Assembly: GCF_018736065.1 (NCBI RefSeq)
Contig: NZ_CP076128.1
Location: 2,046,001 to 2,110,000 of the forward strand
DNA length: 64,000 nt
Origin: Flammeovirga kamogawensis
GTDB taxonomy: Bacteria; Bacteroidota; Bacteroidia; Cytophagales; Flammeovirgaceae
Direction of reading: 5' to 3'
Made by a program: the position numbers and the translations under genes. The notes beneath the pieces were generated by a model that saw only the letters and a program-made list of their open reading frames with translations, was not told the origin of the DNA and made no database searches. Positions 13,743 through 63,419 of the stretch are shown here, piece after piece (position 1 is the stretch's first letter; each line of letters starts with the position of its first letter).

Positions 13743-14606
13743 TTAAAAAGGCAATACTCTTGCTACTTCTTTCTTATATTTTTGAAACGATTCAGGCCTG
13801 TTTTTCATCATCTGCTTATCTTTTAACGGAATTGATGCAAACATAAACATCATCCACATACCCACTGAACCTAAAACGGTATACCAAGGAGCTGCATAAG
13901 CTGTACCCATCATGGCAACGCCAAACCAAAACATCATCTCTCCCAAATAATTAGGATTTCTTGATTTAGCCCAAATTCCCGTTCTTAAAATATCGTCTTT
14001 TTTCTTATTAGGTCTTAACCTAAATTTAGCAAGTTCATTGTCCGCTAAATATTCAAAAATAGTCCCTACAAAAGCTGTTGCTGCTCCTAAATAAAACAAC
14101 CATCCAATTTCTAAAATACCTGCTTCATAAACCCATTGAAGTCCCCACATACTAGCAAAAACTATTAATGTTGGATATAAATGAATGGCTAAGAAATTTA
14201 TAGGTTGAAAGAATGCCTTAAACTGATGTCTGAAACTTACATATCTAAAATCTTCGTGCTCCCATCCAGACCAACCTCTTGCCCAACTTAATGTAAGTCG
14301 CCAAGACCATAAACTAACTACAATAGCACATATCCATTGAGGTGCTGACCAATCTGCTCCATCGAATAGATAAAAATATTGAAGAATAAAATAGAATGGA
14401 ATAACGCTCCAATACGCATCATATACACTGCTATTTTTCTTAATTACAGAAAACATATACGTTACCACTGTCATTGCTAAATCTGCATATAACATACGTA
14501 ATACTAGCGGTTTCTCTTTAAAATATTGAAAAGCAGAATAACCACCTACAGCCACTATAAAATAAATGACTGTAATTTCTAGAAGAGCAATTTGTTTCTT
14601 ATTCAT
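13743..14606 (-). CDS. DUF1295 / steroid 5-alpha-reductase-like membrane protein
   Basis: 287 aa with about seven hydrophobic segments. The C-terminal half carries the DUF1295 signature: FEYLADNELAKFR, then GIWAKSRNPNYLGEMMFWFG, and at the end MMKNRPESFQKYKKEVARVLPF (in two overlapping pieces). RNPNYLGE is the NADPH-binding segment shared with steroid reductases and isoprenylcysteine methyltransferase-like proteins. The substrate is probably an unsaturated lipid or isoprenoid, but this is inferred from the fold family only. Its ATG overlaps the stop of the upstream MBL-like gene (ATGA), so the pair is translationally coupled. Confidence 0.85.
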   Translation of the reverse strand: MNKKQIALLEITVIYFIVAVGGYSAFQYFKEKPLVLRMLYADLAMTVVTYMFSVIKKNSSVYDAYWSVIPFYFILQYFYLFDGADWSAPQWICAIVVSLWSWRLTLSWARGWSGWEHEDFRYVSFRHQFKAFFQPINFLAIHLYPTLIVFASMWGLQWVYEAGILEIGWLFYLGAATAFVGTIFEYLADNELAKFRLRPNKKKDDILRTGIWAKSRNPNYLGEMMFWFGVAMMGTAYAAPWYTVLGSVGMWMMFMFASIPLKDKQMMKNRPESFQKYKKEVARVLPF

Positions 14607-15376
14607 GAGATTGTTGTTAGTTTATAATGATCTAAAGGTTGATAGGTTGACGAAAGCCAAGGCAATGCTTTTAATTGATCTGTTGGTACTGCACGCACTA
14701 CTTTTGCGAAAAATGTGACTAACCCTTTTGCATGTTTGTCCTCATCGTGTGTTGGTACTATCACTTTAGGTTGTATCTGATCAAAAAGCGTTTTTACTCC
14801 ATCTATTCCTGGCGAAACAACCCCACCTAAAAAGAAAGGAAGCTTATATAAATTAAAAGGTGTAATTAATAGTTTACAATCACTTACTCCCGCAAGTTGG
14901 TCTTTATGTTTTTGATCTAAAGAAAAACCATGAGTTGCGAAATAAACACTCTCTTTACCATCATCTAAAACAAAGCAATCATAAATGGGATCTATAGCTC
15001 TGCGTGTTGGTAAAAAATGTATATCAACCTCTTTTATGGTAATTTTATTTACTTTTTTATCTAAAGGAAGAAATGCTGTTTGAGGTAATATTTTTTGTAC
15101 GTCTTTTGCAATGCTTCTTGGACCAATAATTACTTTTGGCTGAAGTTTAAGTAAAGTTTCCTTATGAAAATGATCTGGATATTTCTGTGTGATTAATACA
15201 GCATCATAACTCGGTACATTATCAAATGCCAACGGTGGAGTTCGATGCCACTGCATGTTAAACCAAGAGAAGAAGTCTATTTCTGTTCCTTGAAGCCAAG
15301 GATCAACTAATAATTTTATGGTATCAAACTCAATAAACCAAGAATTGTCCATATTGAGTCGTTGTAAGTTTATCAT
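14603..15376 (-). CDS. MBL-fold hydrolase-like protein with altered metal site
   Basis: 257 aa. LLVDPWLQGTEIDFFSW and SYDAVLITQKYPDHFHKETL resemble metallo-beta-lactamase-fold lipid hydrolases. The metal motif HxHxDH reads QKYPDH: the first His is Gln and the second is Tyr, keeping the Asp-His pair. A later His occurs in VPTHDEDKHAKG. It may bind one metal, act on a different substrate, or be catalytically inactive. It forms a two-gene operon with the DUF1295 gene, overlapping it by 4 nt. Confidence 0.68.
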   Translation of the reverse strand: MINLQRLNMDNSWFIEFDTIKLLVDPWLQGTEIDFFSWFNMQWHRTPPLAFDNVPSYDAVLITQKYPDHFHKETLLKLQPKVIIGPRSIAKDVQKILPQTAFLPLDKKVNKITIKEVDIHFLPTRRAIDPIYDCFVLDDGKESVYFATHGFSLDQKHKDQLAGVSDCKLLITPFNLYKLPFFLGGVVSPGIDGVKTLFDQIQPKVIVPTHDEDKHAKGLVTFFAKVVRAVPTDQLKALPWLSSTYQPLDHYKLTTIS

Positions 15377-24121: not shown

Positions 24122-24132
24122 CAATCGCAATA

Positions 24133-24310
24133 CTTATCAAGAAAGGCAGAGGGACTGGGCCCTATAACGTCTTGGCAACCTGCGCTCTCCATAGCAAGGT
24201 GCTAATTCCCAACTCGAAGGTGTTCGAGAAAAGATGAGTTTATCTCCTAAAATGACAAAAAGAGGCATTTTCATGTCCTCATGCTAATCAAATAAGTAAT
24301 GCCTTTTAAT
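24133..24310 (+). ncRNA. SAM-I (S-box) riboswitch with expression platform
   Basis: The aptamer 24133-24238 has the S-box landmarks: CTTATCAAGA, then GGCAGAGGGACTGG, TTGGCAACC, GGTGCTAATTCC, and a closing GATGAG. P1 pairs CTTATC (24133-24138) with GATGAG (24233-24238). Downstream, 24263-24269 can pair with 24298-24304 ahead of TTTT, while GAGGCAT (24262-24268) can instead fold locally with ATGTCCTC. These two are mutually exclusive and look like a switch, though which one terminates is inference. It should shut off the lipoprotein-metK transcript when S-adenosylmethionine is abundant. Confidence 0.9.
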
Positions 24311-61272: not shown

Positions 61273-61390
61273 CTGAAAAGGACTTCAATAAATATTTAAA
61301 GCTTGTTTATGCTAATGCAACTACTGTGCAAATTTTATAACAAAAAGACAAATATAAGAGATGTATTGTCAATTTATCTAAAAAATAAAA

Positions 61391-61460
61391 AAAGAGCCTC
61401 CGAAATTCAGAAACTCTTTCCTTCTTAAACTAAACTAACAAACAAACTTTCAACTAATTT
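61391..61460 (-). repeat. Conserved 3'-end element, copy 1 (terminator hairpin plus conserved block)
   Basis: Read on the minus strand, the conserved block 61460-61428 contains AAGTTTGTTTGTTAGTTTAG and is followed by a hairpin (61420-61391; AAAGAG/CTCTTT outer stem, TCTGAA/TTCGGA inner) and T7. It lies 29 nt after the stop of the small ORF at 61489. Copies 2 and 3 share the block almost base for base. Confidence 0.8.
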
Positions 61461-61488
61461 ATTTTTTTAGTAAAGTCATTTTAATGTT

Positions 61489-61836
61489 TTATGATGCCTG
61501 TAGATAATCTACATTATCAGACACAAAATGCATATCTCCAACTACTTCTTTTACTAAAGGAGCAGGAGCCTCTTTACTTATAATTTCTATATATTCATTT
61601 TCCGTTAGTGTATTACCTTTTTCTCTTGTTGATGAAAATAATTCATAAACTCTTGATTCTACATATTGTTTAAAAACGTCTTTCATTAATTTTAATAAAT
61701 CGACATTTTTAGAACCTTGATTCAAAGTAACATCATAAACAGGAGATGTTTCAGAGATCATTGTGATGTTTAATTCACCTGTTAAATCTGAATTTGATTT
61801 AGGATCTTGAAATTTGAAGTTATATTTGATAATCAT
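61489..61836 (-). CDS. Small hypothetical protein, paralogue A
   Basis: 115 aa. The first half is beta-like (IIKYNFKFQDPKSNSDLTGE), the second helical, with QYVESRVYELFSSTREKGN and EYIEIISKE. That helical segment aligns by eye with QYTETRIFETFLKFREEG and DYISVLSDE in the ORF at 62207, and more weakly with the ORF at 62869. Both A and B end in Ala-Ser. There is no signal peptide or membrane helix. Function unknown. It is followed by the conserved 3'-end element and preceded by a long non-coding leader with repeats. Confidence 0.62.
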   Translation of the reverse strand: MIIKYNFKFQDPKSNSDLTGELNITMISETSPVYDVTLNQGSKNVDLLKLMKDVFKQYVESRVYELFSSTREKGNTLTENEYIEIISKEAPAPLVKEVVGDMHFVSDNVDYLQAS

Positions 61837-61980
61837 ATAGGTTATTATTTGATGGATACACTTGGTTATGCGTTAACAACATCTAACGGCATTGCAAACA
61901 ACACATTTAAATAAGTTTAAACAAGATTTAACTCCATAACATTAAAATAATCCAATTTTTTCTTGGTTAAAATCTATATG

Positions 61981-62026
61981 TTAACGAATTGTGAATAAAA
62001 TATTAACGAATATGATTAATCATATT
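61981..62026. promoter_or_regulatory. Direct repeats and palindrome upstream of small ORF A
   Basis: TTAACGAAT occurs at 61981-61989 and 62003-62011, exactly 22 nt apart, and overlaps an 18-nt perfect palindrome, AATATGATTAATCATATT (62009-62026). It lies 145-190 nt upstream of the ORF start. On the minus strand the repeats read ATTCGTTAA, similar in spacing and core (CGTTA) to LytTR sites. Regulatory function is inferred only. Confidence 0.38.
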
Positions 62027-62093
62027 TATATACAAAGTGATTACATTCAATAACATCATATAAATATCTATCAAAATATGAATTGATAATAAA

Positions 62094-62160
62094 AAAAGAG
62101 CCCGTAAAAATTACGAGCTCTTTTCTAACTAAACTAACAAACAAACTTCCAACTAATTTT
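62094..62160 (-). repeat. Conserved 3'-end element, copy 2 (terminator hairpin plus conserved block)
   Basis: The conserved block is at 62160-62127 and the hairpin at 62124-62094 (14-bp stem, AAAAGAGCTCGTAA with TTACGGGCTCTTTT on the minus strand), followed by T7. It begins 47 nt after the stop of the small ORF at 62207. Confidence 0.8.
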
Positions 62161-62206
62161 TTAATTCTATAGTAAATAGTATTTCTGGGTTATAATATTT
62201 TTAATT

Positions 62207-62560
62207 CTAAGAAGCAGATTTCATAAATGCTCCCTCAGAAATTATTGACAATTCAACTAATGTATCATGGATATCTTCTACTGATAACTCATCAGATAAT
62301 ACACTAATATAATCCGAAATATCTGCTGATATTCCTTCTTCTCTAAATTTTAAAAATGTCTCAAAAATCCTTGTTTCAGTATACTGAGACATGCCTAACT
62401 GCAACAATGCTTCTCTTTCTGATGCTGAAATAAATTCTCCTTTTGCATCAATAGAGAACTTAAATAAATTGTTCTTTTTCGTAACTTTTAAAAATACTGA
62501 AAAGAAAATATCCGAATTCTTCAATTCACCTTCTAATGCAATTTTGTAGAAATTAGTCAT
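62207..62560 (-). CDS. Small hypothetical protein, paralogue B
   Basis: 117 aa, soluble and acidic. An N-terminal beta-like half (YKIALEGELKNSDIFFSVFL) is followed by a helical half with QYTETRIFETFLKFREEG and DYISVLSDE, the segment shared with the ORF at 61489. Codon use and A+T content match the surroundings. There is no motif for a catalytic function. It is isolated by 308 nt from the next ORF upstream and carries the conserved terminator element downstream. Confidence 0.62.
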   Translation of the reverse strand: MTNFYKIALEGELKNSDIFFSVFLKVTKKNNLFKFSIDAKGEFISASEREALLQLGMSQYTETRIFETFLKFREEGISADISDYISVLSDELSVEDIHDTLVELSIISEGAFMKSAS

Positions 62561-62868
62561 AACAATTTACTTTAAGTATTAAACAATTATTAAATTGTAA
62601 TCAATTCGTTCTGTTTTGATTACATCTGCAAATAATTGTAAATATTTTAATTGTACAATAGTAAGAGGCGTAAAAAGTACATTTTATTAGAATTGTTATA
62701 TGATTTACTTCATATCATTATATTATGAATAATTAAAAAGTACAAAAAACAATACATAAGGTGAACTATTATCTATTTTTCTAATTAGTTCCAAAATTAT
62801 ATTCTGCAGTATCAATCATTCTTAAAATTATCACACTATTTAAATACAAATACAAAATAGGAGTTATT
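62561..62868. other. Intergenic region between small ORFs B and C
   Basis: 308 bp, extremely A+T rich, with no ORF and no copy of the conserved 3'-end element. An inverted repeat ATATGA..TCATAT (62698-62715) is the only visible structure. A promoter for ORF B should lie here, but no TAnnTTTG box was found. Confidence 0.5.
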
Positions 62869-63108
62869 TTATTTCTTCCTTTTTAATAACTCATCTTTAA
62901 TAATACTATCTATACATTCTTCTAGAGAAATATTTTTTTTATTCTTCCGTAGCTGTAAAAATTTTTCATAAATAATAGAGAGTAATTCATTTGAATCAAT
63001 GAACTCTAAATTTATTTCTTTAAACTTTACAGAAGAATAAGCTATAATTTTAGAAAGGTACTGAGGCTCTGGTTCAGTAAATAAAGGTGAGGTAAAGTTG
63101 GTAGTCAT
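62869..63108 (-). CDS. Small hypothetical protein, probable paralogue C
   Basis: 79 aa from the ATG at 63108 (MTTNFTSPLFTEPEP); the longer frame from 63162 adds an Ile/Tyr-rich run likely to be chance. The C-terminal part IIYEKFLQLRKNKKN and LEECIDSIIKDE resembles the helical segment of the two downstream small ORFs, but the beta-like N-terminal half is missing. The protein ends in LLKRKK. It could be a shortened family member or only a chance similarity. Confidence 0.42.
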   Translation of the reverse strand: MTTNFTSPLFTEPEPQYLSKIIAYSSVKFKEINLEFIDSNELLSIIYEKFLQLRKNKKNISLEECIDSIIKDELLKRKK

Positions 63109-63186
63109 GATATAAAAAATTATGAGGTAGTAAAGAATACACAAGAAAGTCTTATTATACAAATACGGTATTTTTTAAGAAATAAA

Positions 63187-63254
63187 AAAAGAACCTGTAA
63201 AAATTACAGGTTCTTTTCACTAAAACTAAACTAACAAACAAACTTCCAACTAAT
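63187..63254 (-). repeat. Conserved 3'-end element, copy 3 (terminator hairpin plus conserved block)
   Basis: The conserved block is at 63254-63222 and the hairpin at 63217-63187 (14-bp stem, AAAAGAACCTGTAA with TTACAGGTTCTTTT), then T7 on the minus strand. It lies 165 nt beyond the stop of the SH3b gene and upstream of small ORF C. Compared with copy 2, stem bases change on both sides so that pairing is kept. Confidence 0.8.
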
Positions 63255-63419
63255 CGAATATTTTTAAAAACTGAGATTTAATCAGTTTGTATTTTCTTGG
63301 TAAATCAACATTTTTTGTTGTTGATATTTCTAAACAAGTATAAATTTTACACTTAAACAAATTTTCATTCAAACTTATTTACATTTCCCTTAATTATTAT
63401 ATTATAGATGTACACAATA

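What the first reader, a model, noticed from the sequence alone, without database searches (positions are those of the whole stretch)
61391..63254. Three copies of a structured 3'-end element: near-identical 30-nt block plus covarying terminator hairpin
Copies at 61391-61460, 62094-62160 and 63187-63254 share an almost invariant single-stranded block (minus strand AAGTTTGTTTGTTAGTTTAG with flanks) directly before a hairpin and T7. Hairpin stems differ but keep pairing (GAGCTC../GGGCTC versus GAACCT../AGGTTC), so structure rather than sequence is conserved there. A constant seed-like region joined to a terminator is the layout of a small RNA family or of 3'-UTR-derived RNAs. Simple duplication would not explain compensatory stem changes.
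Basis: partly seen in the sequence, partly recalled or inferred. Interest (0 to 1): 0.72.

Follow-up and report, generated by a model that had tools for sequence, protein, structure and literature searches.

The report
Multicopy small RNA family in Flammeovirga
Three stretches of this marine bacterium's DNA look like members of an undescribed family of small regulatory RNAs whose 20-letter front part has hardly changed across two bacterial families and may silence other genes by pairing with their messages.

Summary
Three minus-strand copies share an exact 20-nt block (AAGTTTGTTTGTTAGTTTAG) followed by a terminator hairpin with different stems. The Flammeovirga genome holds six exact copies. 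The block occurs in 17 of 18 genomes of its family and 10 of 13 of a second family, and in none of the other 359 sampled from the order. In 53 distinct copies, 13 of 15 stem pairs show compensatory changes. 'Founder' loci have the block at the RNA's expected 5' end, behind a near-palindromic AAC-N17/18-GTT motif (19 of 29). In Flammeovirga it multiplied: window copies 1 and 2 sit in 3' UTRs of paralogous small-protein genes; copy 3 looks free-standing. No Rfam match. Best explanation: a multicopy sRNA family whose open seed pairs near start codons, as GibS/FopS do in Bacteroides. Support for pairing is moderate: ≥10-nt seed complements are enriched at −32..−1 in this genome (14 versus 4.2, 0 of 200 controls) but not in an RNA-less genome. 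A close relative was inconclusive, the reversed seed gave 11 against 16 at −60..−1, and whole-genome near-complements were not enriched. Expression and targets are untested.

The parts
61384..61457 (-). RNA copy 1: TTAGTTGA + 20-nt invariant block (61430-61449) + terminator hairpin (about 61387-61423) with T run; 31 nt after the stop of the 115-aa ORF
   Evidence: (79.6 bits, E 3e-14)
62088..62156 (-). RNA copy 2: TTAGTTGG + invariant block (62129-62148) + terminator hairpin (about 62092-62126); 50 nt after the stop of the 117-aa ORF
   Evidence: (76.6 bits)
63181..63253 (-). RNA copy 3 core: TTAGTTGG + invariant block (63226-63245) + terminator hairpin (about 63186-63218); looks free-standing, 166 nt after the stop of the DUF5675/SH3 gene
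   Evidence: (76.5 bits)
63268..63288 (-). Upstream hairpin of copy 3 (AAACTGA...TCAGTTT); a hairpin with a different stem stands at this place in the 15 free-standing copies folded
   Evidence: RNAalifold on a MAFFT alignment did not recover it
63304..63325 (-). Second upstream hairpin of copy 3 (ATCAAC...GTTGAT)
63331..63361 (-). Promoter-like stretch for copy 3 (TTTG ... TACTTGTTTA), imperfect match to the Bacteroidota TTTG / TAnnTTTG consensus; would give an RNA of about 140 nt
   Evidence: consensus quoted in a PMC7366714 passage; inference
61489..61836 (-). 115-aa ORF, small protein family, C-terminal QAS; carries copy 1 in its 3' UTR
62207..62560 (-). 117-aa ORF, paralogue of the 115-aa ORF; carries copy 2 in its 3' UTR
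62869..63108 (-). 79-aa ORF between copies 3 and 2, weaker paralogue, no RNA copy in its 3' UTR
14614..14624 (-). Candidate target site in the window: 11-nt exact complement of the seed, 18 to 8 nt before the ATG of the 287-aa DUF1295 ORF (13743-14606)
   Evidence: statistical, not shown to be a target

Best explanation
The three copies are members of a multicopy family of small regulatory RNAs in Cytophagales. The ancestral form is one RNA of about 65-70 nt. It starts at the invariant block, which stays single-stranded as a long 5' seed, and ends at an intrinsic terminator. It is made from its own near-palindromic (AAC-N17/18-GTT, ECF-sigma-like) promoter. In Flammeovirga the core was duplicated. 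Some copies became longer free-standing RNAs with an added 5' hairpin; two came to lie in the 3' UTRs of paralogous small-protein genes, from which RNA 3' ends could be released. The seed most likely pairs with matching AC-rich stretches just before start codons and lowers translation, without Hfq and perhaps with an RRM protein. Shown here: copies, conservation, covariation, synteny, terminator, promoter-like motif, and enrichment of seed complements before start codons in one genome. Inferred: transcription, processing, pairing, repression, protein partner.
For: Copies with at most one mismatch in 17 of 18 own-family and 10 of 13 second-family genomes, 0 of 359 others, no control match seen. 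Stem covariation. In 16 of 33 type-A sites the RNA is divergent from the same TetR-like gene, whose protein is 32-57% identical to the own genome's (94% in the close relative G006), while the 20-mer is unchanged. Proteins beside copies 1 and 2 are 36-50% identical to this genome's in five of six other species, while the block differs by at most one base. AAC-N16-19-GTT with AAC 32-35 nt before the block in 19 of 29 type-A loci, 9 genera; shuffles mean 1.2, max 5. Seed complements of at least 10 nt at -32..-1: 14 against 4.2 +- 2.2 (0 of 200) in 618 ORFs of this genome; RNA-less G037 2 against 2.6 in 320 ORFs; sibling block not enriched. No Hfq, one RRM_1 protein. Same layout as GibS/FopS, which pair at start codons (PMC7366714 and PMC11697453 passages).
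Against: No expression data. Near-complements of a 17-nt stretch of the seed are not enriched genome-wide (116 non-self against 142 for the reversed control). The reversed seed complement itself gives 11 runs of at least 10 nt in the same 618 leaders, against 16. Enrichment in the close relative G006 is weak (4 against 2.0; 33 of 200 controls reach it). Several word lengths and windows were tried, so the p-values are exploratory. Candidate sites in aroA and trpA are kept within the genus but not clearly beyond it. The Flammeovirga founders and G017 lack the AAC-N-GTT motif (10 of 29), and a first positional test with a wrongly guessed window gave 0 of 29. Sites were collected by similarity to the block, so its invariance is partly by construction.
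Confidence: 0.55

Rival explanations
1. The RNAs exist, but the block is a protein-binding site: its UUUG/UUAG repeats bind an RRM-type protein, so the copies act as sponges or protein-stabilised 3' ends rather than by base pairing.
For: The block is near-invariant over 20 nt; the genome has one RRM_1 protein and no Hfq; the sibling family shares GTTAGTTT in its block; RbpB of Bacteroides binds FopS RNAs (PMC11697453 passages). The reversed seed complement is also fairly frequent in leaders.
Against: Seed complements are enriched before start codons in this genome but not in an RNA-less one. Protein and pairing roles can coexist, as for FopS.
Confidence: 0.27
2. Ordinary 3' UTR and terminator sequence carried along by duplication of a small-gene unit, with no trans function.
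For: Copies 1 and 2 follow paralogous ORFs.
Against: Copy 3, the two contig-C2 copies and the founder are not behind such ORFs. The proteins diverge to 36-50% while the block stays the same, and it is kept across two families.
Confidence: 0.07
3. 5' leader or attenuator of the next gene (a cis element with a regulated terminator).
For: Each window copy lies before another gene on the same strand, and a terminator behind a conserved block is the attenuator layout.
Against: The next gene differs between copies (OMP-like gene, 115-aa ORF, 79-aa ORF; for the founder of the own genome hemL, a name from recall), and a copy on contig C2 runs towards the VF530 gene on the other strand. One 15-pair stem is predicted and no competing structure came out of the consensus fold.
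Confidence: 0.08
4. A repeat or mobile element with no function.
For: Multicopy, partly in tandem (contig C2).
Against: Positions are syntenic across 7 Flammeovirga genomes and stems covary. No match in phages; one 19-mer match in viral contigs, with no terminator seen; plasmid matches only weak (E 0.2), in transposase genes.
Confidence: 0.03

Closest known systems
FopS sRNA family and GibS of Bacteroides thetaiotaomicron (PMC11697453, PMC7366714; passages read)
   Same: Multicopy paralogues of about 65-70 nt (FopS) with a shared 5' seed; GibS has a mainly single-stranded 5' seed and an intrinsic terminator; one FopS member is 3'-UTR-derived; GibS has a conserved near-palindromic PM2 promoter (boxes at -10 and -30), which the AAC-N17-GTT motif resembles; the partner named for FopS is RbpB, of the RRM-1 proteins.
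   Different: Found in Flammeovirgaceae and a family with Bernardetiaceae and Thermoflexibacter records; model R1 found no copy among 395 class-wide genomes other than the own one. The seed letters of FopS/GibS were not available, so homology is untested. Two copies here sit in 3' UTRs of paralogous small genes.
Yfr1 of cyanobacteria (PMC2190773, abstract read)
   Same: Short (54-69 nt) RNA with an ultraconserved unpaired motif kept across a wide clade.
   Different: Motif is 11 nt, ACUCCUCACAC, in an unpaired stretch between two stem-loops; here 20 nt, U/G-rich, at the expected 5' end of the founder, and multicopy.
Sibling sRNA families such as Qrr (Vibrio) and LhrC (Listeria) (named in the PMC11697453 discussion)
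   Same: Several paralogous sRNAs that share sequence and are thought to share targets.
   Different: Other clades; sequences not compared here. Hfq dependence of Qrr is recalled and from no call.
Second Flammeovirga RNA-like family found here (block AGTAATAGTTAGTTTTTGGGT)
   Same: Same layout by eye: upstream hairpin, constant block, terminator; tandem copies; shares GTTAGTTT.
   Different: Different block; no enrichment of its complement before start codons; not in the window.

Membership tests
GibS/FopS sRNA family | R1/R1' seed sequence at the 5' end | not testable with these tools
   Seed letters not found in the main text by the strings searched; supplements could not be opened
GibS/FopS sRNA family | Occurrence in Bacteroidaceae | tested here: inconclusive
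   R1 found only the own genome among 395 genomes drawn from the class, but names are hidden, filters strict and 13 candidates scored per genome, so whether Bacteroidaceae were among them is unknown
GibS/FopS sRNA family | Unpaired 5' region followed by intrinsic terminator | tested here: met
   in the founder the block is the expected 5' end, not mapped by experiment
GibS/FopS sRNA family | Pairs near start codons of target mRNAs | tested here: inconclusive
   Enrichment in G000 only; no direct test
GibS/FopS sRNA family | Bound by the RRM protein RbpB | not tested
   One RRM_1 protein is encoded; binding not testable
Any Rfam family | Score above the family's gathering cut-off | tested here: not met
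   Only a SAM riboswitch elsewhere in the window; permissive scan of three loci gave five matches, none above its cut-off
Hfq-dependent sRNA | Hfq present | tested here: not met
   PF17209 not found in the own genome; found in 5 of 14 control genomes
Yfr1 | Unpaired ACUCCUCACAC motif | tested here: not met
   The aligned block differs
3'-UTR-derived sRNA | Shares its terminator with an upstream mRNA | tested here: inconclusive
   Position fits copies 1 and 2 in all 7 clusters examined; processing not tested

The most novel reading that the evidence does not exclude
An ancient Cytophagales small RNA, driven by an alternative-sigma promoter, with a near-invariant 20-nt 5' seed that tunes a biosynthesis regulon (candidate sites before trpA, aroA, hisB, glyA and cobalamin genes, and a trpG/pabA-like gene in a close relative). 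It works without Hfq, and in Flammeovirga it was both multiplied and built into the 3' UTRs of a paralogous protein family, tying those genes to the regulon.
Probability: 0.25. Interest if true: 0.75.

Novelty: new member of a known kind. Interest (0 to 1): 0.58.

Why it matters
My searches found no paper on small RNAs in these bacteria: 'Flammeovirga' with 'small RNA' gave one, on argonaute nucleases; 'Cytophagales' with small-RNA terms listed 12 papers, none holding the word Cytophagales. An sRNA family with a 20-nt seed kept across two families, clear covariation, a likely promoter and a short list of candidate mRNAs gives a direct test of whether seed pairing at start codons, shown for GibS and FopS in Bacteroides, is general in the phylum. 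A transcriptome study of F. pacifica exists (PMC6581685, seen in the listing only) and might hold reads for it.

Tried and rejected
Rfam: nothing. Phages and plasmids: nothing of weight. Viral contigs: one 19-mer match without a visible terminator, taken as chance.

Whole-genome near-complement count of the seed: no enrichment. Duplex energy of the seed against start regions versus mid-gene: weak (difference -0.32 against -0.05±0.17 for controls). Counts of ≥8 nt not enriched (48 against 52). Reversed seed complement: 11 runs of ≥10 nt against 16. Of the 16 sites, 14 have their centre at -25..-8, but so do 66% of shuffled-seed hits.

A positional form of the AAC/GTT test with a wrongly guessed window gave 0 of 29. 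RNAalifold on 13 upstream hairpins gave no common structure. Single folds of 15 of 23 free-standing type-B copies, upstream stretches chosen by eye and near-duplicates left out, are more stable than shuffles (mean -5.0 against -1.2 kcal/mol, 0 of 300); at least one copy not taken (G006 C2:1123929) folded otherwise.

Pfam and NCBIfam: no family over its cut-off for the small proteins. The model of the 117-aa protein (pLDDT 85.6) had no PDB match at E 0.001.

Five of 74 sites were dropped before alignment because they lack a terminator in place or are cut by a contig end; four of these were dropped. In one search, 25 of the 30 aroA loci fetched were shown (left out: G037, G023, G119 and two pieces of G019), and one row (L333) is misplaced by a contig edge; all 28 trpA loci were shown. 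One search was too loosely posed to say anything.

Full report
The observation. Three minus-strand copies at 61384-61457, 62088-62156 and 63181-63253 share an exact 20-mer, AAGTTTGTTTGTTAGTTTAG, preceded by TTAGTTGG or TTAGTTGA and followed by a hairpin and a T run. At up to 3 mismatches only these three sites exist in the window; 0.02 are expected by chance. A covariance model built partly from them finds the same three at 76-80 bits, with nothing else in the window close (next best 20.8 bits).

Copies elsewhere. The own genome (6.97 Mb, 4 contigs) has six exact copies: three here, two in tandem on contig C2, and one at C1:404054 between a TetR-like gene and a gene I read as hemL (hemL is from recall). 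The genus is Flammeovirga: contig lengths of its member G005 equal those of F. pacifica records. Of 390 genomes of the order, 27 match the 21-mer with at most one mismatch: 17 of 18 in the own family, 10 of 13 in a second family, 0 of 359 others; I saw no match of the reversed control. A scan of the contigs of 84,980 species for the 21-mer (one ambiguous base) gave 32 stretches. Their titles name Flammeovirga, Flexithrix dorotheae, Thermoflexibacter ruber, Bernardetiaceae, Flammeovirgaceae and other Cytophagales MAGs, and two MAGs labelled Thalassobius and Thalassovita. Model R1 found strong copies in the same two families among 108 genomes of the order, and weak matches (E 1e-6 to 8e-5) in five genomes of four other families; these have related but altered blocks. 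Among 395 genomes drawn from the class it found only the own genome at E 1e-5, under strict filters.

Anatomy. Seventy-four sites were collected, five were dropped, and 53 distinct cores were aligned. Columns 1, 2 and 4-17 of the block never vary; since sites were found by similarity to the block (at most two mismatches), part of this is by construction. Diverged copies do exist: the model found a few with altered blocks in G004, G007 and G008. The stem varies freely but stays paired: 13 of 15 pairs have double-sided changes, and the covariation score is 0.662 against 0.328 for shuffles and at most 0.25 for slid pairings.

Two types. Type A, the founder, is a single or near-single copy in a genome. 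In 16 of 33 type-A sites it is divergent from one TetR-like gene. That protein is only 32-57% identical to the own genome's, apart from the close relative G006 at 94%, while the 20-mer is unchanged. AAC-N16-19-GTT lies with its AAC 32-35 nt before the block in 19 of 29 type-A loci, from nine genera; shuffled upstream regions give a mean of 1.2, at most 5. The ten that lack it are the nine Flammeovirga founders and G017. This spacing puts the start of the RNA at about the first base of the block, so the block would be the 5' end. The motif resembles the near-palindromic PM2 promoter of B. thetaiotaomicron, with boxes at -10 and -30, which is conserved before GibS (PMC7366714 passages), and a -10 'TGTT' matching that non-canonical promoter has been linked to ECF sigma factors (PMC12596196 passages). 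The resemblance rests on those descriptions; the logo itself was not seen.

Type B, in Flammeovirga, carries TTAGTTG before the block. Free-standing copies have a hairpin further upstream whose stem differs between copies (15 of 15 folded, out of 23 such copies; stretches chosen by eye). In the seven clusters examined, of nine genus genomes, the order is DUF5675/SH3 gene, RNA 3, a 77-90-aa ORF, the 117-aa ORF, RNA 2, a 109-116-aa ORF, RNA 1, an outer-membrane-protein-like gene, with RNA 2 at 47-97 nt and RNA 1 at 8-31 nt behind their ORFs' stops (domain names, own genome only). The small ORFs are paralogues (hhalign probability 96.8 and 87.3). Their orthologues in five of six other species are only 36-50% identical to this genome's, while the RNA block beside them differs by at most one base. 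The block is therefore under its own selection, and two of three window copies look like 3'-UTR elements.

How it may work. In GibS an open 5' seed, and in FopS a 5' seed, pairs around start codons and lowers expression, and for FopS RbpB counteracts this. Here the own genome lacks a Pfam-detectable Hfq and has one RRM_1 protein. I tested pairing statistically on the leaders (upstream of the first ATG) of predicted ORFs of at least 100 aa: 618 of the own genome (864 kb), 267 of the close relative G006 and 320 of G037, a genome of the order with no copy and similar G+C in the stretch measured. For exact complements of at least 10 nt at -60..-1 the counts were 16 against 5.6±2.6 with shuffled seeds (0 of 200 reach it), 5 against 2.1 (17 of 200) and 3 against 3.6 (132 of 200); the reversed complement gave 11, 4 and 7. 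At -32..-1 they were 14 against 4.2 (0 of 200), 4 against 2.0 (33 of 200) and 2 against 2.6 (148 of 200); at -60..-29 nothing was clearly enriched in any of the three. The block of the sibling family served as a second control and showed no enrichment. Against this, near-complements of a 17-nt stretch of the seed are not enriched genome-wide (116 non-self against 142 reversed), and counts of at least 8 nt are not enriched. The result is moderate support, from one genome, with several thresholds tried.

Candidate targets. All 16 genes with at least 10 nt and 4 of the 11 with 9 nt were scanned with Pfam. They include trpA, aroA (EPSP synthase), hisB (IGPD, 9 nt), serine hydroxymethyltransferase, two cobalamin-pathway proteins, an Lrp/AsnC regulator, two TPR-CHAT proteins and a transhydrogenase subunit, beside a thioredoxin-like protein, an ExbB-like protein, an epimerase-like protein, DUF2807, DUF1295 and DUF3857 proteins and four without a family. 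In G006 there is also a trpG/pabA-like gene (named from sequence, recalled). The share of biosynthesis genes was not tested against a background. In six Flammeovirga genomes ACTAACA stands before aroA in 6 of 6, where it overlaps the upstream stop codon, and AACAAACA before trpA in 5 of 6; neither is clearly kept in other genera, though G016 has another 10-nt run before aroA.

A second RNA-like family. Model R1 also pulled in a sibling with the block AGTAATAGTTAGTTTTTGGGT, an apparent upstream hairpin and a terminator, in tandem arrays about 200 nt apart. It has 8 sites in the own genome at up to two mismatches and occurs in 11 of 18 family genomes; the terminators of the own genome's copies were not looked at. 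It shares GTTAGTTT with the first family, which could be a common protein-binding part.

Verdict. That this is a real, undescribed RNA family I hold at about 0.85. The whole best explanation, with base pairing near start codons, I hold at 0.55. It works like GibS/FopS; whether it belongs to that family was not testable. It is a new family of a known kind.

Noticed in passing
Own genome C1:499892-500314 (three tandem copies), C1:743792, 1164161, 4039854, 4628964, C2:1073049; L146, L147, L148: A second multicopy RNA-like family (block AGTAATAGTTAGTTTTTGGGT plus terminator) in tandem arrays with a period of about 200 nt, nine copies in one array in G005; 11 of 18 family genomes.
   Followed up: partly
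window 61489-61836, 62207-62560, 62869-63108: Family of small paralogous proteins of unknown function (77-117 aa) beside the RNAs in the seven Flammeovirga genomes examined; the two larger end in ...AS; AlphaFold model of one (pLDDT 85.6) without a PDB match.
   Followed up: partly
window 24131-24240 +: SAM riboswitch above Rfam's gathering score.
   Followed up: no
L106, L119: Two MAG records titled Thalassobius and Thalassovita carry the founder block; contigs of the same lengths lie in genomes the tool places in the window's own family, so the titles are probably wrong.
   Followed up: no
L149, L150, L151: Diverged copies (AAGTTTGGGTTTGTTAATTTAG, AAGTTTGATTGAAAGTTTAG) before terminator-like hairpins in G008, G007 and G004.
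   Followed up: no
L152, L153 (own genome C1:3943691 and G006): AAAATTATTTGGTTTAATTGTTAAGGGGAG, identical in both genomes, before a strong terminator-like hairpin, perhaps a further RNA.
   Followed up: no
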